This document shows, in pieces, positions 1-8,109 of a stretch of 8,109 bases of DNA (the first letter of the stretch is position 1; every line of letters starts with the position of its first letter). Under the pieces are notes generated by a model. The model had not been told where the DNA came from, ran no database searches, and was given only the letters and a program-made list of their open reading frames with translations. This DNA is from Peptostreptococcaceae bacterium (GTDB lineage: Bacteria; Bacillota_A; Clostridia; Peptostreptococcales; Acidaminobacteraceae). Position numbers and translations under genes: made by a program. The stretch is taken from NCBI GenBank assembly GCA_013619035.1, contig JABXKX010000018.1, positions 1 through 8,109 of the forward strand, given 5' to 3'.

Positions 1-1091
1 TCACCATATTTTTCAACTTCATTTAATCCAAATTCAATCGCTTTTGAATATCTTTTTGCTTTGAAATAATTGGTGACCACGTTAATTGATGGCTGTAATT
101 CATCTGTTTGCTCGGCTGCTTTTAAAAAGTATGGTATTGCTTCTAAATAATAACCTTGATCATCGTAAATCAAACCTATAGTATTATTACATTTATAATT
201 ATCCGGTTCTATAGATTCTAAAATATCCGCATGTTTTAAAGCGAGCTCATATTGAAAACTGTTCTTAAGAGCATGGGTTAATAAATAGTGAGTTTCAAAA
301 TCATCATACCTTTTTATGATGCTCAAAAGATATTCTGCACTTTTATCATATCTCTCATTATTATAGTAATACCAAGCAGTGTTTAAATGAACATCCTCTT
401 CAAATGAAAATTTTCTGCCAATCTCGGTGTAATACTCCAGTACTTCTGATTCACTTTTAGCGACTTCAAGAACTTTTCCTTTATAGTCATATATATCATA
501 ATCATAGGGATACATCTCTATGGCTCTATCGGCATATAACAAAGCGTCATCATAATCACCATGCATCATTAAAGCATCAACAACACTTAAGTAAGCATCA
601 TAATCTTTTTTAAGTTCAATTGCTGATTTTAAAGCTTTTACAGATAGGTCGTATTCTCCTATTTCATAGTAAACTTGTCCAAGACCATAATATGAATAAT
701 ACTCTTCATCGTTTAGGTCCAAAGAAAGTTCATAATACTCTATTGCATCATCATAGTCATTCAAACCTAATGAGGCATTACCTGCATTAACATACTCGAT
801 GGACTCTTTTTTACCAATATCTATAGCTTCTAAGATATATTTCTTACTCAACTCATATTCACCGAGTTGGTTATAAGCCATACTGATATTATTCAGTACA
901 ACATCATCTCCATCAGCGTACTCTTTCGCTTCCAAAAACACTTCAAGTGCACCTTCAACATCATCATTATTCAACATTTGATTGCCTTCATCCATTTTAG
1001 CAAAATATAACTTTGAGTCTTCTTTAAGCAAAGATACATCACACCCTACTAAAAGTAATACAAGGCACAAAAACATCACTATTTTTTTCAT
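1..1091 (-). CDS. TPR-repeat lipoprotein, 3' end outside the window
   Basis: The gene reads from an ATG at 1091 leftward off the window edge: 363 codons are visible with no stop, so the C-terminus is missing. The N-terminus MKKIVMFLCLVLLLVGC is a lipoprotein signal peptide with the lipid-attached Cys at residue 17, so the product should be anchored on the outer face of the membrane. From about residue 65 the protein is a run of roughly nine tetratricopeptide repeats of 33-34 residues, recognisable by motifs such as AYNQLGEYELSKKY and VYYEIGEYDLSVKAL. TPR solenoids bind other proteins or peptides; the partner here is unknown. The protein is rich in Tyr, Asp and Glu. A GGAG at 1096-1099 supports the start, and a promoter lies just upstream. 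It sits 203 bp beyond the end of the hydrolase operon, behind a probable terminator, so I take it as a separate transcript. The assignment as a TPR lipoprotein is firm; the function is not known. Confidence 0.9.
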   Translation of the reverse strand, partial: MKKIVMFLCLVLLLVGCDVSLLKEDSKLYFAKMDEGNQMLNNDDVEGALEVFLEAKEYADGDDVVLNNISMAYNQLGEYELSKKYILEAIDIGKKESIEYVNAGNASLGLNDYDDAIEYYELSLDLNDEEYYSYYGLGQVYYEIGEYDLSVKALKSAIELKKDYDAYLSVVDALMMHGDYDDALLYADRAIEMYPYDYDIYDYKGKVLEVAKSESEVLEYYTEIGRKFSFEEDVHLNTAWYYYNNERYDKSAEYLLSIIKRYDDFETHYLLTHALKNSFQYELALKHADILESIEPDNYKCNNTIGLIYDDQGYYLEAIPYFLKAAEQTDELQPSINVVTNYFKAKRYSKAIEFGLNEVEKYG

Positions 1092-1231: not shown

Positions 1232-1308
1232 AAAAAAATAACCCTATAAAATGGAATTTGCTAAATCTAGAGGATATACTCTTTTTTTAACGGTCTATCT
1301 TATAGGGT
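1232..1308 (-). terminator. Probable terminator closing the hydrolase operon
   Basis: On the minus strand, ACCCTATAA (1308-1300) pairs perfectly with TTATAGGGT (1249-1241), and the second arm is followed by TATTTTTTT (1240-1232). The U-tract and position suit an intrinsic terminator. The loop is unusually long, 50 nt, and contains a small AGAG/CTCT hairpin. The first arm lies inside the last codons of the upstream hydrolase gene, so the stop codon falls in the loop just after it. The stem is A+T-rich apart from three G-C pairs, so strength is uncertain. Confidence 0.5.
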
Positions 1309-2047
1309 CCAGTTTATATGATGGTGTGTCTTCAATTAACTCATATGCTTCTAATACGAAGTATATCACTCTTAATTGTTCTGAGATTCTTTTTTCAAAC
1401 GATTGTTCGACATCTGTTTCAAATGTAATGATAGGGATGTCTTCTTGTGATAATGTTGTATTGAGTGTCCCTTCTTTTTCATCATAAAAATAAACATAGG
1501 GTTCATCTAATTTGTCATTTAGAAAGACCAATAGTTCTTCAACTAATGTCACCAGACTAAGATCCGTGTAGATTATAGAGTGACCAATAGCATAGATTTC
1601 CCCAGAGTTATAATTCTTTGATTCATGAAGATCAAGTACAATATCAGGTTGAAAGTCAGTTATATTCTCATGTATTTCATAAGCAAGTTCTTCAACAACC
1701 ATACCTTTTTTTCTTCCAGGAAATGCTCGATTAAGATCTCCTAACGAAGGAAGAGTCCTTGATTTTTCTTTTACGGCCAATTGATTGGCTTCTGGCAATA
1801 GAATCAAAGTACCCTTTTTAAGTTGAATCTCTTGAAGTCTTTTTAGCGCTTCAATACCTGCAGGTTCATTACCATGTATCCCTGCAACAATATAAACTGT
1901 AGGTCCTTTTAAAATAGACTTGATAACGATACCCTCTGTTGCAGTTTGTTCACCTTCACAGATGGTAAATTGAGTTGTATGTTGTTTAGGGTAAAATAAA
2001 AAAAGAACAATGACAATCAGTAGTAATACTCTCAATACTAATTTCAT
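1295..2047 (-). CDS. Membrane-anchored zinc hydrolase, succinylglutamate desuccinylase/aspartoacylase family (short form)
   Basis: This 250-residue protein has the signature of the AstE/aspartoacylase branch of zinc carboxypeptidase-like (M14) enzymes, which hydrolyse the amide bond of N-acyl amino acids. The motif HGNEPAG gives zinc ligands H58 and E61, DLHES gives H141, and DLNRAFPG (104-111) matches the family's conserved substrate-binding stretch. E210 in ITFET is the likely catalytic base by position. Residues 4-19 form one very hydrophobic helix after a short basic N-terminus, with no lipobox, so I infer a membrane anchor with the catalytic domain outside. Classical AstE is cytoplasmic, so this placement is unusual. 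AAGGAGA stands just before the ATG, and the gap to the upstream paralogue is only 13 nt, so the two are surely cotranscribed. It is shorter than its neighbour, mainly between the zinc-ligand motifs. The family is confident; the substrate is unknown. Confidence 0.85.
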   Translation of the reverse strand: MKLVLRVLLLIVIVLFLFYPKQHTTQFTICEGEQTATEGIVIKSILKGPTVYIVAGIHGNEPAGIEALKRLQEIQLKKGTLILLPEANQLAVKEKSRTLPSLGDLNRAFPGRKKGMVVEELAYEIHENITDFQPDIVLDLHESKNYNSGEIYAIGHSIIYTDLSLVTLVEELLVFLNDKLDEPYVYFYDEKEGTLNTTLSQEDIPIITFETDVEQSFEKRISEQLRVIYFVLEAYELIEDTPSYKLDPIR

Positions 2048-2060
2048 TGTTCTCTCCTTT

Positions 2061-3185
2061 CTAGTCTACTGGTAGTAAGTATTTACCAACACCATTTTCA
2101 ACTAACTCTTCATAACTTGGTAATCCTGTAACAATCATAGCCTTTGATTCATCATAAACAGACATAGACTCCATAAAGCTTGTAACACCTTTTATATGTC
2201 TAGCAACACGCTGTTCTATTGGATGACCACTTTCGTCAAACGGCACAAATAATCTTCCTAATTCAAAAGCTTTCTCATAAAGATGATCTTGACCTTCAGT
2301 CACTAACTCTGCATTAGTCGCCCCTCTAAGTCTACCTTGAGACGGATTAGCCGTTTCCATTAAAACTGCAAAAGTATCTGTAGCATCACCAAGTTCTCTA
2401 TGAGTTAATCCTCTTAAATTAACCGGTGACGGTTCAAGACCAATATCAATACCATCTAATTGCATATTGATTGCTACATCAGCTGCTATAGGCATTGCAT
2501 CTTCATGAGCTACAATCGCATTGATGACTGGATACTCTGGAGATGCTTCATGTAAATCTATCGTCATATCAATCTTATTGGTATTGATAAGTGTTGTAAT
2601 ACCATAACATACTTGTTCTGTTTGAGTACCATCAGGTCTACCTGGATAACCTCTGTTTAGATTACGAGTTTCACTACCTGATAATTGCTGACCAGAAGCT
2701 GCATGGATATACACATCAGGGTCTGGCCACTGATCAACTGGATTAGTCGCTCTTGAACCGTATCTAAACCATCTCTCACCAGATTCTGTTTCTATCGTAA
2801 ACTTTTGTGGTGAAGCTTCCTGTGCATCATTATGAGTAAAGGCACTATTGTTTGCACGTGGTATCACATATAACGTACCCTTCTCTATTACTGCATTTTC
2901 TATCAGTACAATAGAAGCAAGATATGCAGCTGATTCATTTGGATGTGTACCGCCAAGTACCAAAGTTGAACCACCAGGTTCAGATCCTTCTAAAACATAT
3001 ATTTCGGTATCTCCAGAAGAATCCTTTAAACCTGGGAAGTAATCACTTAACATCTCAATACGTGTGACACCAGGACCTTTAACAATCGGTTCCTCTTCAT
3101 ACATTTTTAAAAACGATTGACCAGAAACAAAAGCAATGATCAATGCTAATACTAAAAATATGGTTGCTGTTATTCGTTTATTCAT
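2061..3185 (-). CDS. Membrane-anchored zinc hydrolase, succinylglutamate desuccinylase/aspartoacylase family (long form)
   Basis: This 374-residue protein belongs to the same zinc-hydrolase family as the next gene. GGTHPNESAA supplies zinc ligands H81 and E84, IDLHEASPE supplies H212, RNLNRGYPGRPDG (174-186) is the conserved substrate-binding segment, and E277 in LMETA is the likely catalytic Glu. There are 127 residues between E84 and H212, against 79 in the neighbour, so it carries an insert of about 48 residues (roughly 115-165) that probably shapes the pocket. Residues 5-22 form a hydrophobic signal or anchor helix without a lipobox, implying an extracytoplasmic enzyme. An in-frame GTG at 3197 would add four residues, but it overlaps the ribosome binding site GGAGG at 3191-3195, so I start at the ATG at 3185. 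It lies 11 nt after the small membrane-protein gene. The substrate is unknown; N-acyl amino acids or gamma-linked peptides are possible. Confidence 0.87.
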   Translation of the reverse strand: MNKRITATIFLVLALIIAFVSGQSFLKMYEEEPIVKGPGVTRIEMLSDYFPGLKDSSGDTEIYVLEGSEPGGSTLVLGGTHPNESAAYLASIVLIENAVIEKGTLYVIPRANNSAFTHNDAQEASPQKFTIETESGERWFRYGSRATNPVDQWPDPDVYIHAASGQQLSGSETRNLNRGYPGRPDGTQTEQVCYGITTLINTNKIDMTIDLHEASPEYPVINAIVAHEDAMPIAADVAINMQLDGIDIGLEPSPVNLRGLTHRELGDATDTFAVLMETANPSQGRLRGATNAELVTEGQDHLYEKAFELGRLFVPFDESGHPIEQRVARHIKGVTSFMESMSVYDESKAMIVTGLPSYEELVENGVGKYLLPVD

Positions 3186-3190
3186 TTTCA

Positions 3191-3195
3191 CCTCC
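3191..3195 (-). promoter_or_regulatory. Ribosome binding site that fixes the start of the long zinc hydrolase
   Basis: GGAGG on the minus strand stands 5 nt before the ATG at 3185. The upstream in-frame GTG (3197-3195) runs into it and therefore cannot be the start served by this site. The site follows directly on the TAG stop of the 47-residue gene, which suggests translational coupling. Confidence 0.8.
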
Positions 3196-3196
3196 A

Positions 3197-3340
3197 CTAC
3201 TTAATCATAAGAACTCTAAGTAGCAATGGAATAATTACAATTGCAGCATTTGCTTGATTTTTCATCTTATCTTCATCAAATAAATTCCAAACAACAAGTA
3301 GCAAAACAATTAAAACAATTATTCTATATATTAATGTCAT
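3197..3340 (-). CDS. 47-residue two-helix membrane protein
   Basis: A short reading frame starts at ATG 3340, behind a good ribosome binding site (GGAAGGTG, six bases before the start), and ends at TAG 3197-3199. It fills the space between permease and hydrolase exactly, with gaps of 15 and 11 nt. The product begins MTLIYRIIVLIVLLLVVW, a membrane helix at about residues 3-20. It continues with a short charged loop DEDKMKNQ (22-29) and a second hydrophobic segment at about 30-45 that ends in Arg and Lys. I do not recognise a family. Its position directly after the permease gene, its membrane nature and the tight operon spacing suggest a small accessory subunit or stabiliser of the permease, perhaps in place of the usual four-helix TRAP DctQ subunit. 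That role is inference. That it is a translated gene is likely from the ribosome binding site and spacing. Confidence 0.7.
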   Translation of the reverse strand: MTLIYRIIVLIVLLLVVWNLFDEDKMKNQANAAIVIIPLLLRVLMIK

Positions 3341-3355
3341 TCTATTCACCTTCCA

Positions 3356-4630
3356 TTAAAAAATCAAACTTGCTAACGGGTTAGAAAAAACAATGAATAG
3401 TATACCAGAAGCAATTATTACAACTGCTGGTACCACTGTTTTCTTTAAAACATCGCCATAATTTTCAACTCCGACAACTTGTGCCGCAAACATTCCAGCA
3501 AGTGCTGTTGGTGGCATCAAGTCACCGATACTTGCAATTAAAGAGAGTGCAGCCGCTGTAATAATTTGATCTTGGCTTAATAAAGCCAATACAAATGGCA
3601 CACCTAATACCGAGGCAGATCCATATGATGATATGGCACCAAATAAAGGTATTGTAATAGCTATACCAACATATAATAAGACGGTTGGTAAACTGAGACT
3701 GTTCACAACAATAAATCCTCTAACACCCGTTAAGGTCATGACTTGAATGAACATACCAACACCAATTAATATGCCCATAACTGGTAATGCACTATTTACA
3801 GCTTCCTTTGTTGTTTTTAATAAATTAAATTTCTCACCTGTAAACACTCCAACAATACTACCCATTAGAAAAATAAGTGGCAAACCAAGATTCGGTAAGT
3901 ATTCTGGTAACATTTTTGTTGATACCATTAATACAATTACAACCAAAATCGGAATATAGATTGTCCAACTATATTTTTTATCTAAATCAATATCTAATTT
4001 CCCTTTTAATTCTTCATAATTAAGATTTTTAACGTACTTATATCCTAAAAATAATACACTGAATATCGCTACTGGTACTGACATCAGCAATAAAGGTATT
4101 TCAAAACCAACATAAGGCATATCAATACCACCACCAATAATCATAACCGGTACGTTAACCGGTGGTGCTATCATACCCATCATACCGCCTATAGCAATAA
4201 TCGCTGCAGTATTAACAACTGGTATACCCATCATAATTAATACAGGAGCAACTAAACTACCTGCTGTTAAAACAGCTGCTGTAGATGATCCTGTAATCAT
4301 ACCGGGAAACATAACAATAATCATCAACAATACCAATAGAAGTGCTGGTTGTTTATGAAATTTATTAATAAACACGGTATTCAATGCATTAAGCGCACCA
4401 GACTTTTCAACGATTTTCATGAAAATCATCGCTGTTGATATAACTAAAATTGTATCTATATAGCCAAAAGTACCTTCAACTAAATGTCGAATCGGTACAC
4501 CCTCACCAGCGATAAGCGTCCCTGAAATCGCTGCTAGAACCATTGCTATACCAACAGGTAATTTAAATTTGAAGCAACCCACCATAAATACAAGGACCAG
4601 TGCAACAAATATAATCAATTCTATTTGCAA
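3356..4630 (-). CDS. TRAP large-subunit (DctM)-like permease, ion-transporter superfamily
   Basis: This 424-residue polytopic membrane protein has the length and architecture of TRAP large permeases, secondary transporters that use ion gradients to import organic acids. The two inverted halves each carry the expected loop motifs. The first half has PGMITGSSTAA (109-119) and MIAPPVNVPV (153-162). The second has GAISSYGSASVLGVPF (331-346) and IGDLMPPTALAGM (368-380). A hydrophilic linker at about 201-220 separates the halves. The start is TTG at 4630, placed 7 nt after a perfect AGGAGG; no suitable in-frame ATG lies nearby. The gene follows an intrinsic terminator with almost no room for a promoter, so expression should depend on read-through. 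No DctP-type binding protein or four-helix DctQ gene is in the window. A stand-alone carboxylate transporter of the same superfamily is the alternative. The class is confident; the substrate is not. Confidence 0.82.
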   Translation of the reverse strand: MQIELIIFVALVLVFMVGCFKFKLPVGIAMVLAAISGTLIAGEGVPIRHLVEGTFGYIDTILVISTAMIFMKIVEKSGALNALNTVFINKFHKQPALLLVLLMIIVMFPGMITGSSTAAVLTAGSLVAPVLIMMGIPVVNTAAIIAIGGMMGMIAPPVNVPVMIIGGGIDMPYVGFEIPLLLMSVPVAIFSVLFLGYKYVKNLNYEELKGKLDIDLDKKYSWTIYIPILVVIVLMVSTKMLPEYLPNLGLPLIFLMGSIVGVFTGEKFNLLKTTKEAVNSALPVMGILIGVGMFIQVMTLTGVRGFIVVNSLSLPTVLLYVGIAITIPLFGAISSYGSASVLGVPFVLALLSQDQIITAAALSLIASIGDLMPPTALAGMFAAQVVGVENYGDVLKKTVVPAVVIIASGILFIVFSNPLASLIF

Positions 4631-4637
4631 GGTTTTT

Positions 4638-4643
4638 CCTCCT
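4638..4643 (-). promoter_or_regulatory. Ribosome binding site that supports the TTG start of the permease
   Basis: A perfect AGGAGG on the minus strand lies 7 nt upstream of TTG 4630. An ATG at 4646-4644 overlaps this site and is out of frame with the permease, so it is not a competing start. Confidence 0.8.
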
Positions 4644-4650
4644 CATTTTC

Positions 4651-4684
4651 AAAAAAATAGCAAGGAATAACAAGATTCCTTGCT
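4651..4684 (-). terminator. Intrinsic terminator inside the operon
   Basis: On the minus strand, AGCAAGGAAT (4684-4675) and ATTCCTTGCT (4668-4659) make a perfect 10-bp stem with a 6-nt loop, followed by ATTTTTTT (4658-4651). It lies between the stop of the small lipoprotein gene and the permease start. On the plus strand the same hairpin is followed by TTTTT, so it could also work in that direction. Partial termination would give more of the two surface lipoproteins than of the membrane genes, a common arrangement in transporter operons. Confidence 0.85.
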
Positions 4685-4693
4685 TTTTGTTAA

Positions 4694-5305
4694 TTACTTA
4701 AATGCCTTTTGAAGTGCTTCTAATGATCCTGCAATACTCTCTACTGATTCAAATGGAATATTGTTTTCTGAAGCTAAATCAGTTAACAAATTATCATAAT
4801 TTCCACTTTCAACATAAACAAGATAGTCTACAGAACCTACTGTTGCGTTTACAAATTTATCTGAAAGTTCACCTCTTCTACCTTCACCACCAACATGCAT
4901 ACCAATGATTGTCATACCATCTTCTTTTGCTTTAGCGATTAAAGTCGTCACACGTTCAATTTCTTCATCCGTATCAATACCTGCAGCGCCAAGTCCTTTT
5001 GAACTACCACCAATAGCAATAATCAATGTTTTGGCATCTCCGATATTCTCTGCATTTAAAACCGTATCAATAGTATATGGGATATCAGTTTTTTTAATTA
5101 ATGATTCAATCATTTTAACATCTGCCGATTGTCCTGCTGATGTTAAAATTAACGGTTGGTCTGCTATAGGAGCATCTAATGTCACTTGCTCAACTGTCAT
5201 ATCAGCTTCAGTACTAACATTTTCATTTGTAGCGGTATCATTACCACATCCTACGGCCAACAATGATATTACCAATATTAATACTACACCTAATTTATTC
5301 TTCAC
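4694..5305 (-). CDS. Small putative lipoprotein, possibly DUF6305-type
   Basis: The product is 203 residues if translation starts at GTG 5305. That start is chosen because AGGAGG (5312-5317) lies 6 nt upstream and because the protein then begins MKNKLGVVLILVISLLAVGC, a lipoprotein signal with Cys20. A longer frame from 5359 would bury the signal peptide behind 18 residues that overlap the previous gene. The mature part opens with PLILTSAGQSADV (51-63), then strand-like TLIIAIGGSSKGLGAAGID (93-111) and IIGMHVGGEGRRGELSDKF (133-151). The alternating strands and helices suggest a Rossmann-like alpha/beta domain. From memory it resembles proteins labelled DUF6305, a name I could not confirm here; no biochemical role is known to me. 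It is coupled to the transferase gene by a 10-nt gap and precedes the permease, the usual place of a binding protein, so solute binding is one possibility. Confidence 0.8.
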   Translation of the reverse strand: MKNKLGVVLILVISLLAVGCGNDTATNENVSTEADMTVEQVTLDAPIADQPLILTSAGQSADVKMIESLIKKTDIPYTIDTVLNAENIGDAKTLIIAIGGSSKGLGAAGIDTDEEIERVTTLIAKAKEDGMTIIGMHVGGEGRRGELSDKFVNATVGSVDYLVYVESGNYDNLLTDLASENNIPFESVESIAGSLEALQKAFK

Positions 5306-5311
5306 TTTGTA

Positions 5312-5317
5312 CCTCCT
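5312..5317 (-). promoter_or_regulatory. Ribosome binding site that decides a GTG start
   Basis: AGGAGG on the minus strand overlaps the TAG stop codon of the gamma-glutamyltransferase gene and stands 6 nt before GTG 5305. It therefore fixes the start of the small lipoprotein and implies coupled translation of the two genes. Confidence 0.8.
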
Positions 5318-7130
5318 AGTTACCCACTGCTTGTCCATCTCTTCTTGGATCACCAACACCTGTGATCACGCCATCTTCAATCATAATACAGTTTGCAGAT
5401 CCTAAAGAAGGATAATATGCCTCTTTTACTGAAACTGTGTGTCCTAGAGCTTCTAGTCCAGTAACTGTTTCTTCTGAAATTCTACTTTCCAGTTCAATAT
5501 CCGTACCTAAAATACCATAGAATCTCGGTGCATTAATTGCATCTACCATTGACATATCATAATCAATTGCATTACTGATAACTTCAGCTACAGCAATGAT
5601 AATCTTAGAACCACCTGGAGATCCAACGACCATAAATGGTTCACCATCTTTCAGTACAAGTGTAGGACTCATACTACTAAGTGGTCTTTTTCCTGATTCA
5701 ATACTGTTTACAGCATCTGGTGATAAATCAAAGTCCATCATATGGTTGTTCATGATAATTCCAGTTCCTGGTACAGTCACTGTTGATCCAAAGAAGAAGT
5801 TAACCGACTTCGTCATAGAAACAATGTTACCTGCTTCATCTAAAACAGATAAGTGAGTTGTACTTTCACTTTCATATGGCCATACATCTGGTTGATCTAA
5901 TTCAGTAATCACTGAATCCATTGAAATTTTCTCTGCTAATGCAGCAGCATAATCTTCCGATGACAATCCGCTTAATGGTACATCTGCAAAAGCGGTATCT
6001 GCCATATATTTTGCTCTATCTGCATAGACAAATTTCATCGCTTCTGTCCATAAATGAATCGCTTCTGTTGAACCATGTTCATATGAACTCATATCAAAGT
6101 TTTCTAATATGTTTAATAATTCAATGATATGTGTTCCTCCAGAACTAGATGGTGGTACTGAAACGATTTCATACCCTCTGTAGTTACCTACAACTGGTTC
6201 TCTCACTTCAACTTTATAATTTGCTAAATCCTCTAATGTTAATACACCACCTAATGATTGAACATTTTCAACCATCATTTCAGCAATTGGTCCTTTGTAT
6301 ATTGCGTCTGATCCTTCAGCAGCAATTGCTTTTAACGTTTTAACTAAATCTGGATTATAAATCGTATCACCAATCTCAAACGGTAATCCTTCTTCATTCA
6401 ACCAAATTGATTTTGATCCTTCATTTAATTCTAAGAACGGGTACATATCACTTATGATACCAGCTAAATTAGCTGTTACTTCAATACCATTGTTATCTAA
6501 TTCTTCAATAACTGGTGCTAAAACTTCAGCCATTGTCATCGTACCATACATCTCAAGTGCTGTTTCAAATCCCATTACTTCCCCAGGTACGCCAATAGCG
6601 AATGGCGAAAATGCTGCACCATAGAAATTAAAGCCTTCACTGCTCATAAACTGACCAAACATTTCTGTAGTCGCATTTGCTGGAGCAACTTCTCTAAAGT
6701 CAATTACAACTGTTTCTCCAGTTTCAGCAATGTAGATTGTCATAAATCCACCACCACCAACACCGGATGCATTGGGTTCAAAACAACCTACTGCAAATCC
6801 AGTAGCAATCGCTGCATCAACAGCATTTCCACCTTGTGCTAAAATCTTAGCGCCAATTTCTGATGCGATTGGTTTTCCCGATACAACCATACCGGTTTCA
6901 CTCGTTGCAGAACGTGCGATTGCAGGGTTTTCAACTGCTACCTCTTCGGTTTCTGTTGTTTCTGTTGTTTCCGTTTCTGTAACTTCAGTAGTTTCTTCGA
7001 CTGCAGTATTGTTTTCAGCCACTTGATTTGTTACGTTTTCATTGTTTGCTTCATTATTCGAGCATCCAATCATAACAAAAGACAAGATTAAAACTACGAT
7101 CATAACCATGGATAATTTTTTAAATCTCAT
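5316..7130 (-). CDS. ggt: Gamma-glutamyltransferase, lipoprotein form
   Basis: This 604-residue protein is a gamma-glutamyltransferase, which cleaves gamma-glutamyl amides such as glutathione and transfers the glutamyl group to water or an amino acid. The signal peptide ends at MIGC with Cys23, so it is a surface lipoprotein. A Thr/Glu-rich tether follows at about 40-68. The proenzyme should cut itself before Thr424 in TTHLSV, leaving a 181-residue small subunit of normal size. R146 in DFREVAP, N444, D466, S485-S486 in KRPLSSMSPT and GSPGG (503-507) match known substrate-binding residues. Only 13 residues separate DF (466-467) from KRPLSS, so the lid loop of the E. coli enzyme is absent, as in the Bacillus subtilis type. 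H463 replaces the Gln of the E. coli enzyme. AGGAGG precedes the ATG. It is the first gene after the response regulator and likely its target. The family is certain; the physiological substrate is not. Confidence 0.95.
   Translation of the reverse strand: MRFKKLSMVMIVVLILSFVMIGCSNNEANNENVTNQVAENNTAVEETTEVTETETTETTETEEVAVENPAIARSATSETGMVVSGKPIASEIGAKILAQGGNAVDAAIATGFAVGCFEPNASGVGGGGFMTIYIAETGETVVIDFREVAPANATTEMFGQFMSSEGFNFYGAAFSPFAIGVPGEVMGFETALEMYGTMTMAEVLAPVIEELDNNGIEVTANLAGIISDMYPFLELNEGSKSIWLNEEGLPFEIGDTIYNPDLVKTLKAIAAEGSDAIYKGPIAEMMVENVQSLGGVLTLEDLANYKVEVREPVVGNYRGYEIVSVPPSSSGGTHIIELLNILENFDMSSYEHGSTEAIHLWTEAMKFVYADRAKYMADTAFADVPLSGLSSEDYAAALAEKISMDSVITELDQPDVWPYESESTTHLSVLDEAGNIVSMTKSVNFFFGSTVTVPGTGIIMNNHMMDFDLSPDAVNSIESGKRPLSSMSPTLVLKDGEPFMVVGSPGGSKIIIAVAEVISNAIDYDMSMVDAINAPRFYGILGTDIELESRISEETVTGLEALGHTVSVKEAYYPSLGSANCIMIEDGVITGVGDPRRDGQAVGN
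6949..6975 (-). repeat. In-frame 9-bp tandem repeat encoding the Thr/Glu linker
   Basis: Three 9-bp units (plus strand GTTTCTGTT, the third with one change) lie head to tail in the transferase gene and encode alternating Thr-Thr-Glu in the tether after the lipid anchor. Unit gain or loss would keep the frame and change only linker length. Confidence 0.65.
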
Positions 7131-7172: not shown

Positions 7173-7201
7173 AGTATAGAAAGAATCGACCATCAATTAC
7201 T
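7173..7201 (-). promoter_or_regulatory. Candidate weak promoter of the transferase operon
   Basis: TATACT (7178-7173) matches five of six bases of the -10 consensus. At a 17-bp spacing the -35 position (7201-7196) has only a poor match, as expected for an activator-dependent promoter. The start would fall near 7166, giving a leader of about 36 nt. Four 9-bp repeats lie immediately upstream, where an activator would bind. This is inference from position and consensus. Confidence 0.35.
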
Positions 7202-7204
7202 ATT

Positions 7205-7240
7205 ATTTCTCTTATTTCTCTTACTTCTCTTATTTCTCTT
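7205..7240 (-). repeat. Four tandem 9-bp repeats, possible regulator-binding array
   Basis: Four head-to-tail copies of AAGAGAAAT on the minus strand (plus strand ATTTCTCTT; one copy has a single change) fill most of the gap after the response-regulator stop codon. Relative to the candidate start near 7166 they cover about -39 to -74. They may be binding sites for the adjacent response regulator, or simply a slippage-prone purine tract. The 9-bp period is shorter than a DNA helical turn, which weakens the case for stacked binding on one face. Confidence 0.65.
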
Positions 7241-7242
7241 CA

Positions 7243-7848
7243 TTAACCTAACCATTTATAATATTGCTTAGGACGTCCAATTTTCCCATAGGATTGATCC
7301 AGTTCAACTAAGTTTTCTTTTACGAGATAATGAAGATATCGATGAACGGTTTGATAAGCGAGACCTGTTTGTTGAGAGATTTTATTAATTGTCATATCCA
7401 ACTCATTTTTCATCATATACTCTTCAATGATTCTTAATGTCGATTGACTGATACCTTTAGCATATTTATACGTTTTCCTAGTTTTTTTTGTTTTGGATAA
7501 ATGAACTGATAACCTCGCTAATAAGTCTGGTGCTTTTATCGGCTTTAAGGCAAAATCACTGGCACCAATTGCTATGAATTCATCTGCTACACTTTGATTT
7601 TCTTCTACGGTTAAGACAATTATAGGAACATCTTTTGATAAACTTCTAATCTTCTTAACACCAGCCATTCCGTTAACAACAGGCATATGATAGTCAATAA
7701 TCACTAAGTCAATTTCCTCGTTTTCAAAGATTTCAAAACCTTTCTGAACAGAAGTCGCCAAAAAAGCATGCCATTTTTTATAAGTTAAGATTTCATTCAG
7801 CGCGTAAAGTATATCTTCGTTGTCATCTATTACTAGTATTTTTTTCAT
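7243..7848 (-). CDS. Response regulator, CitB/DcuR-like output domain
   Basis: This 201-residue protein has an N-terminal receiver domain (about 1-118) and a C-terminal winged helix. The receiver has the acidic pair D8-D9, phospho-acceptor D52 in IIDYHMP, T80 and K102 in LKP. The output domain at about 135-201 contains a helix-turn-helix in TINKISQQTGLAYQTVHRYL and ends in GKIGRPKQYYKWLG. A Gly-Arg-Pro tail of this kind is typical of the CitB/DcuR/DctR group, whose members control di- and tricarboxylate uptake and use. Its ATG lies inside the end of the kinase gene, with GGAGCGAG upstream, so the two are translationally linked. The next gene downstream is the lipoprotein transferase, separated by 112 bp with repeats and a candidate promoter, so control of that operon is the natural inference. 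It is somewhat shorter than typical CitB proteins. Confidence 0.9.
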   Translation of the reverse strand: MKKILVIDDNEDILYALNEILTYKKWHAFLATSVQKGFEIFENEEIDLVIIDYHMPVVNGMAGVKKIRSLSKDVPIIVLTVEENQSVADEFIAIGASDFALKPIKAPDLLARLSVHLSKTKKTRKTYKYAKGISQSTLRIIEEYMMKNELDMTINKISQQTGLAYQTVHRYLHYLVKENLVELDQSYGKIGRPKQYYKWLG

Positions 7849-8109
7849 ATTTTACTCGCTCCTTGTCTAAAGTTAGTATCACTCTCGTGCCAGCATTTAC
7901 TTTCGAATCGATTTTAAAGGTGCCATGATGATTATTTATAACGGTTTCTACATATCTTAATCCAATGCCTGAAGAACCACTGGTACTAAAACCAGGTTCT
8001 CTTATTTTTTCTAATAGTTCCGGTTCGATACCTTTTCCATTATCATTAATTTCAAAACAGATATAATCTGTATTCTCAAATATCGAAATAACAATACGTC
8101 CGTCAACAC
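7823..8109 (-). CDS. Sensor histidine kinase, C-terminal end only
   Basis: The last 94 residues of a histidine kinase are visible; its 5' part lies beyond the right edge. The fragment is the end of the ATP-binding domain. FEINDNGKGIEPELL (18-32) contains the N/G1-type nucleotide-binding motif, and EPGFSTSGSSGIGLRYV (36-52) contains the GF segment and the GIGL G2 box, followed by the usual GTRVILTL terminal strand. The frame ends at TGA 7823-7825, inside the response-regulator gene, so the two genes overlap by 26 nt. Together they form a two-component pair in which this protein should phosphorylate D52 of the regulator. The sensing domain is not in the window, so the signal cannot be read here; the partner's CitB-like type suggests a carboxylate or related metabolite. 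Confidence 0.9.
   Translation of the reverse strand, partial: VDGRIVISIFENTDYICFEINDNGKGIEPELLEKIREPGFSTSGSSGIGLRYVETVINNHHGTFKIDSKVNAGTRVILTLDKERVKYEKNTSNR

What the first reader, a model, noticed from the sequence alone, without database searches (positions are those of the whole stretch)
1295..7130. Uncharacterised surface hydrolase-plus-permease operon
Seen: a lipoprotein gamma-glutamyltransferase, a small lipoprotein, a TRAP-like permease, a 47-residue membrane protein and two membrane-anchored aspartoacylase-family enzymes lie in one direction. Gaps are 10-15 nt except for one 63-bp gap that holds a terminator. Known: the transferase cleaves gamma-glutamyl bonds, the aspartoacylase family cleaves N-acyl amino acid amides, and TRAP-like permeases import organic acids. 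Inferred: three outside-facing hydrolases break down one class of amide or gamma-linked compound and the permease imports the product. I do not recall this combination as a described system.
Basis: partly seen in the sequence, partly recalled or inferred. Interest (0 to 1): 0.72.

Follow-up and report, generated by a model that had tools for sequence, protein, structure and literature searches.

The report
Polyglutamate-processing and permease gene module
A set of genes for surface enzymes and a membrane transporter is kept together across several bacterial phyla and tends to travel with the genes that make the slimy polymer poly-gamma-glutamate, so it probably trims that polymer at the cell surface and takes the pieces back in.

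Summary
In detail: six co-directional genes lie where stated, and one 63-nt gap holds a terminator-like hairpin. It is no local accident. GGT, DUF6305 lipoprotein, DctM-like permease, 47-residue membrane protein and AstL hydrolase recur in 63 of 78 fetched loci from several phyla. The missing clue lies outside the window: relatives carry PgsB, PgsC and TIGR04332, the poly-gamma-glutamate (PGA) genes, beside the module. In 60 sampled Fusobacteriota the same 13 genomes hold DUF6305 and PgsB, and none of the 13 holds PgsA. GGT lacks the lid loop, as PGA-cleaving Bacillus GGT does; AstL's model is closest to Csd4, a D-Glu-mDAP carboxypeptidase, though by sequence it matches AstE/DoeB enzymes. Best reading: the surface trimming and recycling arm of a PgsA-less PGA system under two-component control. 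Inferred only: PGA genes in this organism, import by the permease, the role of DUF6305, which also occurs without PgsB (20 of 40 genomes in one sample). No description was found in the papers listed. New variant of a known kind.

The parts
7823..8107 (-). C-terminal end of a histidine kinase (ATPase part), cut by the window edge; same family as the kinase found in relatives of this locus
   Evidence: Open frame; 90.8 bits to a profile of 35 kinases from relatives' loci (profile built) and 49% identity over 91 residues to that of L001
7243..7848 (-). Response regulator with receiver domain and winged-helix-like C-terminus
   Evidence: PF00072 84 bits; 281 bits to the profile of 37 regulators from relatives' loci
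5316..7130 (-). Gamma-glutamyltransferase lipoprotein, lid-loop-negative, nucleophile T424
   Evidence: PF01019/TIGR00066; alignment to E. coli and B. licheniformis GGT; T424 in 83 of 83, 16 residues between D433eq and PLSS in 81 of 83 aligned GGTs
4694..5305 (-). DUF6305 lipoprotein, Rossmann-like alpha/beta domain; proposed sensor or ligand-binding partner
   Evidence: PF19823 169 bits; model pLDDT 85; no clear structural relative
4659..4684 (-). Terminator-like hairpin with T-run between DUF6305 and permease genes
   Evidence: 10 pairs, 4 G-C
3356..4630 (-). DctM-like permease, 13 hydrophobic segments by a simple window
   Evidence: PF06808 44 bits; only PDB sequence match at E <= 1 is a TRAP DctMQ protein, E 4.8e-4; hydrophobicity
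3197..3340 (-). 47-residue membrane protein, two hydrophobic segments, conserved C-terminus IPLLLRxLMIK
   Evidence: Recognised in 68 of 78 loci; 64 relatives aligned, 25 rows printed with the window's
2061..3197 (-). AstL: membrane-anchored zinc hydrolase, AstE/AspA-like by sequence, Csd4-like by model (probable start ATG at 3185)
1295..2047 (-). AstS: second, smaller membrane-anchored hydrolase of the same superfamily
   Evidence: PF24827 81 bits, PF17033 30 bits; H58, E61, H141 in 26 of 26, E210 in 25 of 26

Best explanation
The module is the surface trimming and recycling arm of a poly-gamma-glutamate (PGA) system of the PgsB-PgsC-TIGR04332 type, which lacks PgsA. Shown by sequence: the five core genes are conserved together across phyla, and they tend to travel with PgsB, PgsC, TIGR04332 and a kinase/regulator pair. 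Inferred: PgsB-PgsC-TIGR04332 make and extrude PGA; the lid-less GGT lipoprotein works on the polymer from its amino end; the membrane-anchored zinc enzymes AstL and AstS cut gamma-glutamyl bonds from the carboxyl end; the permease, with the 47-residue protein as a small partner, takes up glutamate or short gamma-glutamyl oligomers; DUF6305 reports ligand to the kinase (or hands it to the permease). PgsB-PgsC-TIGR04332 probably lie just beyond the window's right edge or elsewhere in this genome.
Against: No PgsB or PgsC in the window, and no genome is held for it. DUF6305 also occurs without PgsB: 20 of 40 DUF6305 genomes in the Bacillota-type sample; in 18 of 20 such regions read (one of them from a genome with PgsB) it sits beside a kinase and regulator, with an oligopeptide ABC transporter in L089. 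Spirochaete genomes with PgsB and TIGR04332 but no DUF6305 exist (6 of 119 sampled). One module locus (L104, genome G493) has a C69 peptidase where GGT usually sits, and no PgsB at E <= 1e-25. By sequence AstL and AstS match AstE/DoeB-type chains better than Csd4, and Foldseek's first row for AstL is an aspartoacylase-family protein. The AstL model is weak at residues 157-177. The window GGT has H where most have E or Q at the alpha-amino contact (H in 13 of 83) and lacks the insert that precedes the nucleophile in B. licheniformis GGT, so its preference may differ. Direction of transport is untested. The co-occurrence counts ignore shared ancestry.
Confidence: 0.62

Rival explanations
1. Assembly rather than recycling (overlaps with the best reading): the module helps export, length control and anchoring of PGA. 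GGT acts like CapD and joins PGA to the wall, AstL sets chain ends, and permease plus small protein form part of the export machine in place of PgsA.
For: Hydrolase and synthetase genes abut in the same direction. PgsA (PF09587) is absent from all 13 module-bearing Fusobacteriota genomes; in the 19 TIGR04332-bearing Bacillota-type genomes with both PgsB and DUF6305 it is absent (6), on another contig, or over 1.8 Mb from PgsB, whereas 4 of 6 genomes with PgsB only have it within about 1 kb of PgsB, so something may replace PgsA. CapD is a GGT-family anchoring enzyme (PMC8062742, PMC4497714, passages).
Against: TIGR04332 alone already accompanies PgsB in 6 Spirochaetota genomes without DUF6305, so the module seems not to be needed for synthesis there. 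The permease belongs to a superfamily known mostly for uptake of organic acids (recalled).
Confidence: 0.22
2. General scavenging: the enzymes break down external gamma-glutamyl or N-acyl amino acid compounds (glutathione, gamma-glutamyl peptides), and the permease imports the product.
For: Family annotations; AstL and AstS match AstE/DoeB-type chains best by sequence; DUF6305 with kinase and regulator in PgsB-less genomes, beside a peptide ABC transporter in L089, suggests a nutrient theme.
Against: Linkage with PgsB, PgsC and TIGR04332; GGT without lid loop in 81 of 83; AstL model closest to Csd4.
Confidence: 0.12
3. Peptidoglycan recycling: AstL and AstS cut D-Glu-mDAP bonds of muropeptides, GGT works on the freed gamma-D-glutamyl peptides, and the permease imports products.
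For: Csd4 is the nearest fold for AstL and its substrate is a PG tripeptide.
Against: Does not explain co-occurrence with PgsB and TIGR04332; PG is near universal (recalled), DUF6305 is not (13 of 60 Fusobacteriota).
Confidence: 0.06

Closest known systems
pgs/cap poly-gamma-glutamate operons of Bacillus (PgsB-C-A-E, CapB-C-A-D-E)
   Same: In relatives: PgsB and PgsC by NCBIfam, and a GGT-family enzyme linked to them, as capD is to the cap genes (PMC4497714, passage)
   Different: No PgsA (PF09587) found next to PgsB; TIGR04332, DUF6305, a DctM-like permease, a 47-aa protein, AstE/AspA-like hydrolases and often a kinase/regulator pair are there instead
Bacillus subtilis/licheniformis GGT
   Same: Lid-loop-negative GGT with most of the same active-site residues
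   Different: Lipoprotein, gene-linked to PGA genes in relatives (the B. subtilis gene is unlinked to pgs; PMC4497714, passage); lacks the insert before the nucleophile; H in place of E/Q at one contact
Helicobacter Csd4 (Peptidase_M99)
   Different: About 15% identity; membrane-anchored; sits in a PGA-linked gene set
DoeB / AstE / AspA deacylases (PF24827)
   Same: Best sequence matches of AstL and AstS
   Different: Outside-facing and membrane-anchored by their N-termini; AstL is under the family's cut-off
TRAP transporters (DctP-DctQ-DctM)
   Same: Permease over the DctM cut-off of Pfam
   Different: No DctP or DctQ among the seven window proteins scanned; a DUF6305 lipoprotein and a 47-aa two-segment protein flank the permease instead
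PghP/PghL PGA hydrolases (PF05908, family name from PMC4497714)
   Same: Zinc carboxypeptidase-like fold acting on gamma bonds (PMC6506827, passages)
   Different: PF05908 was not among the Pfam hits of AstL or AstS; PghP is phage-derived (PMC4497714, passage)

Membership tests
Poly-gamma-glutamate (pgs/cap) locus | PgsB ligase (TIGR04012) | tested here: inconclusive
   Not in the window, whose right edge cuts the kinase gene; in 30 of 44 genomes of DUF6305 loci over cut-off, 13 of 13 DUF6305-bearing Fusobacteriota
Poly-gamma-glutamate (pgs/cap) locus | PgsC membrane protein (TIGR04011) | tested here: inconclusive
   Not in the window; over the cut-off in L001 and L009, the two scanned; PgsC-like in 41 of 78 loci by my own profile
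Poly-gamma-glutamate (pgs/cap) locus | PgsA/CapA (PF09587) with PgsB | tested here: not met
   In relatives: 0 of 13 PgsB-bearing Fusobacteriota genomes; not on PgsB's contig, or over 1.8 Mb away, in 19 of 19 module-type genomes of the Bacillota-type sample (fragmented assemblies weaken this). Hence called a variant, not a canonical pgs/cap locus
Gamma-glutamyltransferase | Catalytic threonine and gamma-glutamyl pocket residues | tested here: met
   T424 in 83 of 83, R114 equivalent 82 of 83, SS pair 81 of 83, G of GG 82 of 83; H at the Q430 position in the window
AstE/AspA (PF24827), AstS | Curated profile score | tested here: met
   81.3 bits, cut-off 25
AstE/AspA (PF24827), AstL | Curated profile score | tested here: not met
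   22.9 bits, cut-off 25; 20 of 20 aligned members match at E <= 0.01, so 'AstE/AspA-like' only
Csd4 / Peptidase M99, AstL | Fold and zinc ligands | tested here: met
Csd4 / Peptidase M99 | Cleavage of a gamma-D-Glu bond | not testable with these tools
   Needs purified enzyme
TRAP transporter | DctM permease | tested here: met
   PF06808 44 bits, cut-off 23.8
TRAP transporter | DctQ and DctP partners | tested here: not met
   Seven window proteins scanned hit neither family; the two cut frames at the window's ends and the relatives' neighbours were not scanned for them
Two-component system | Kinase and regulator, adjacent | tested here: met
   the kinase is cut by the window edge

The most novel reading that the evidence does not exclude
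A PgsA-independent PGA machine that makes, trims and re-imports its own polymer, with a new three-part transporter in which a DctM-type permease works with a 47-residue membrane subunit (in place of DctQ) and a DUF6305 lipoprotein (in place of DctP, and also the sensing partner of the kinase), spread through fusobacteria, clostridia, spirochaetes and other bacteria.
Probability: 0.25. Interest if true: 0.78.

Novelty: new variant of a known kind. Interest (0 to 1): 0.6.

Why it matters
PGA is a protective, immune-masking and industrially used polymer studied mainly in Bacillus (recalled). How other bacteria handle it is open: a 2013 review notes that the F. nucleatum pgs operon has no pgdS counterpart and that the localisation of its PGA needs study (PMC3815933, section 11 read). 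This module offers candidates for the missing release, trimming and uptake steps and gives DUF6305, a name found in no paper of the searched library, a testable role.

Tried and rejected

Limits of the counts. The 78 loci are what was kept as the best 80 of 168 confirmed places, so they lean towards close relatives. Of the 15 loci without all five core genes, 6 are cut by contig ends (L012, L018, L040, L043, L047, L063), in 5 my gene caller lost a gene that one search shows (L019, L028, L036, L062, L077), and 4 differ (L017, L044, L048, L052; L017 has DUF6305-kinase-regulator). One search was given 45 of the 78 loci (44 genomes), mainly those without PgsB in the fetched stretch; of the other 33, 32 had it in the stretch. 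One search fetched 20 regions: 19 of the 20 DUF6305-only genomes plus G301, which has PgsB (G272 left out). GGT alignment: 82 GGTs of 450-760 residues plus the window. Phylum names of the samples are inferred from record titles; the tool tells none. Searches used stricter E limits than 47-50. Candela 2009 itself was not read.

Searches for a description in print: (0 papers); several lists were capped (for example 20 of 363, 25 of 51, 15 of 22). None of the listed titles or abstract starts shows this gene set. PMC13082233 (passages) describes a CapB-CapC-CapA operon in Cloacimonadota; PMC11006615 (passages) says nothing of PGA. Subscription papers are mostly not in that library.
Full report
What is there. 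The minus strand carries, in reading order, the end of a histidine kinase (8107-7823), a response regulator (7848-7243), a GGT lipoprotein (7130-5316), a DUF6305 lipoprotein (5305-4694), a DctM-like permease (4630-3356), a 47-residue membrane protein (3340-3197), two AstE/AspA-like hydrolases called AstL (3185-2061) and AstS (2047-1295), and a cut lipoprotein-like frame (1091-3). Gaps inside the six-gene set are 10, 63, 15, 11 and 13 nt (read); the long one holds a 10-pair hairpin with a T-run.

It is conserved. An alignment of DUF6305 proteins found 168 confirmed places in genome contigs, and 78 distinct loci were kept. In the 78 loci my profiles recognise GGT in 75, DUF6305 in 76, permease in 75, the small protein in 68 and AstL in 70; 63 hold all five. 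Of the other 15, 6 are cut by contig ends, 5 lost a gene to my gene caller and 4 differ. Record titles name clostridia, fusobacteria, spirochaetes, Holophagaceae and a SAR324 bacterium. Permease to small protein and small protein to AstL are tight (median 15 and 13 nt). In two metagenome proteins AstL and AstS are one chain (P0079, P0096; read by eye).

What it travels with. Clustering the neighbours gave recurrent partners. In the two loci scanned, NCBIfam names three of them PgsB (TIGR04012), PgsC (TIGR04011) and 'poly-gamma-glutamate system protein' (TIGR04332) (in L001 PgsB is a little under its cut-off); the others are a histidine kinase and a regulator. One order, seen in L001, L013, L060, L071 and L078, is PgsB-PgsC-TIGR04332-kinase-regulator-GGT-DUF6305-permease-small-AstL; elsewhere PgsB-PgsC-TIGR04332 follow AstL or AstS. 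L001 is the first hit of the scan (AstL of that MAG 73% identical to the window's; DUF6305 54%), it also has AstS, and the window's kinase fragment is 49% identical to its kinase. So PgsB-PgsC-TIGR04332 may lie just beyond the window; I could not look, since no genome is held.

How strict is the link. Of 44 genomes holding 45 of the DUF6305 loci, 30 have PgsB over the curated cut-off, 7 more have partial or sub-cut-off matches (E <= 3.2e-27), and 7 have no convincing match, all MAGs by title. In 60 Fusobacteriota genomes DUF6305 and PgsB are over cut-off in the same 13, 12 of them within 4.5 kb. In 120 Spirochaetota DUF6305 is clear only in the centre genome (one further hit is marginal), while 6 others have PgsB without it. 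In 299 genomes of a Bacillota-type phylum DUF6305 occurs in 40, PgsB in 26, both in 20 (hypergeometric 3e-15, ancestry ignored). TIGR04332 is in 19 of the 20 with both, in 1 of 6 with PgsB only, in 1 of 20 with DUF6305 only, and in 6 of 6 of the Spirochaetota with PgsB only. The phylum names are inferred from record titles.

No PgsA. PF09587 is in none of the 13 PgsB-bearing Fusobacteriota genomes, though 18 of the other 47 have it. In the 19 TIGR04332-bearing genomes of the Bacillota-type sample that hold PgsB and DUF6305, it is absent in 6, and in 13 it is on another contig or over 1.8 Mb from PgsB; of the 6 genomes with PgsB only, 4 have it within about 1 kb. These loci thus look like a PgsA-less PGA variant; fragmented assemblies weaken the second count.

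A second home for DUF6305. Of 20 regions fetched (19 DUF6305-only genomes and G301), 18 have DUF6305 directly beside a kinase and regulator of the same families. In L089 Pfam shows an oligopeptide ABC transporter next to them, and a like ORF pattern is seen by eye in others. L017 of the first set has the same arrangement. So DUF6305 goes with a kinase/regulator pair in both homes, which makes a sensing role likely; this is inference.

Mechanism. I commit to PGA trimming and recycling by a surface GGT and Csd4-like carboxypeptidases, with uptake by the permease and control by the kinase/regulator with DUF6305 (0.62). The tight junction of hydrolase and synthetase genes (AstS-PgsB median 4 nt, n 10) also fits a part in PGA assembly or anchoring (0.22); these two overlap, so the odds are not exclusive. 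Scavenging of other gamma-glutamyl or N-acyl compounds (0.12) and PG recycling (0.06) are less likely.

Known or new. PgsB-PgsC-TIGR04332 linkage is implied by NCBI's family name. F. nucleatum is cited as a PGA maker whose pgs operon lacks pgdS (PMC3815933, sections 10 and 11 read); I saw an AstL relative of it but not its other genes. None of the titles or abstract starts listed describes GGT, DUF6305, permease, small protein and AstL as one system; several lists were capped. I rate it a new variant of a known kind.

Noticed in passing
window 3-1091, minus strand: Lipoprotein-like frame with TPR-like repeats (by eye, no profile run), cut by the window's left edge, about 200 bp after AstS.
   Followed up: no
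window 7200-7240: Pyrimidine-rich near-tandem repeat (units like CTTATTTCT) between the response regulator's end and the GGT start; may be regulatory.
   Followed up: no
window 4659-4684; L002, L021, L022, L032, L033, L046, L058: A hairpin plus T-run between DUF6305 and permease genes recurs: 13 of 39 gaps of 30 nt or more (70 gaps in all) by a loose scan without shuffled control. Could set DUF6305/GGT above permease levels.
   Followed up: partly
L064 5499-7262, L065 4230-5996, L066 380-2236, L069 9815-11509: Three DUF6305 domains in tandem in one protein.
   Followed up: partly
L089-L100, L102, L103, L105-L108: DUF6305 beside a kinase and regulator in 18 of 20 regions read, 17 of them from genomes without PgsB at E <= 1e-25, in L089 with an oligopeptide ABC transporter: a second conserved arrangement.
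   Followed up: partly
L104 1184-2764: Peptidase C69 where GGT usually sits, before DUF6305, permease, small protein and AstL.
   Followed up: partly
L063 1693-3429: DUF6305 and permease in one reading frame, but without the start of the permease: probably a deletion in the contig.
   Followed up: yes
P0079, P0096: AstL and AstS in one 652-residue chain (by eye).
   Followed up: no
G142, G144, G199, G204, G209, G214: Spirochaetota with PgsB and TIGR04332 but without DUF6305: a third arrangement.
   Followed up: no
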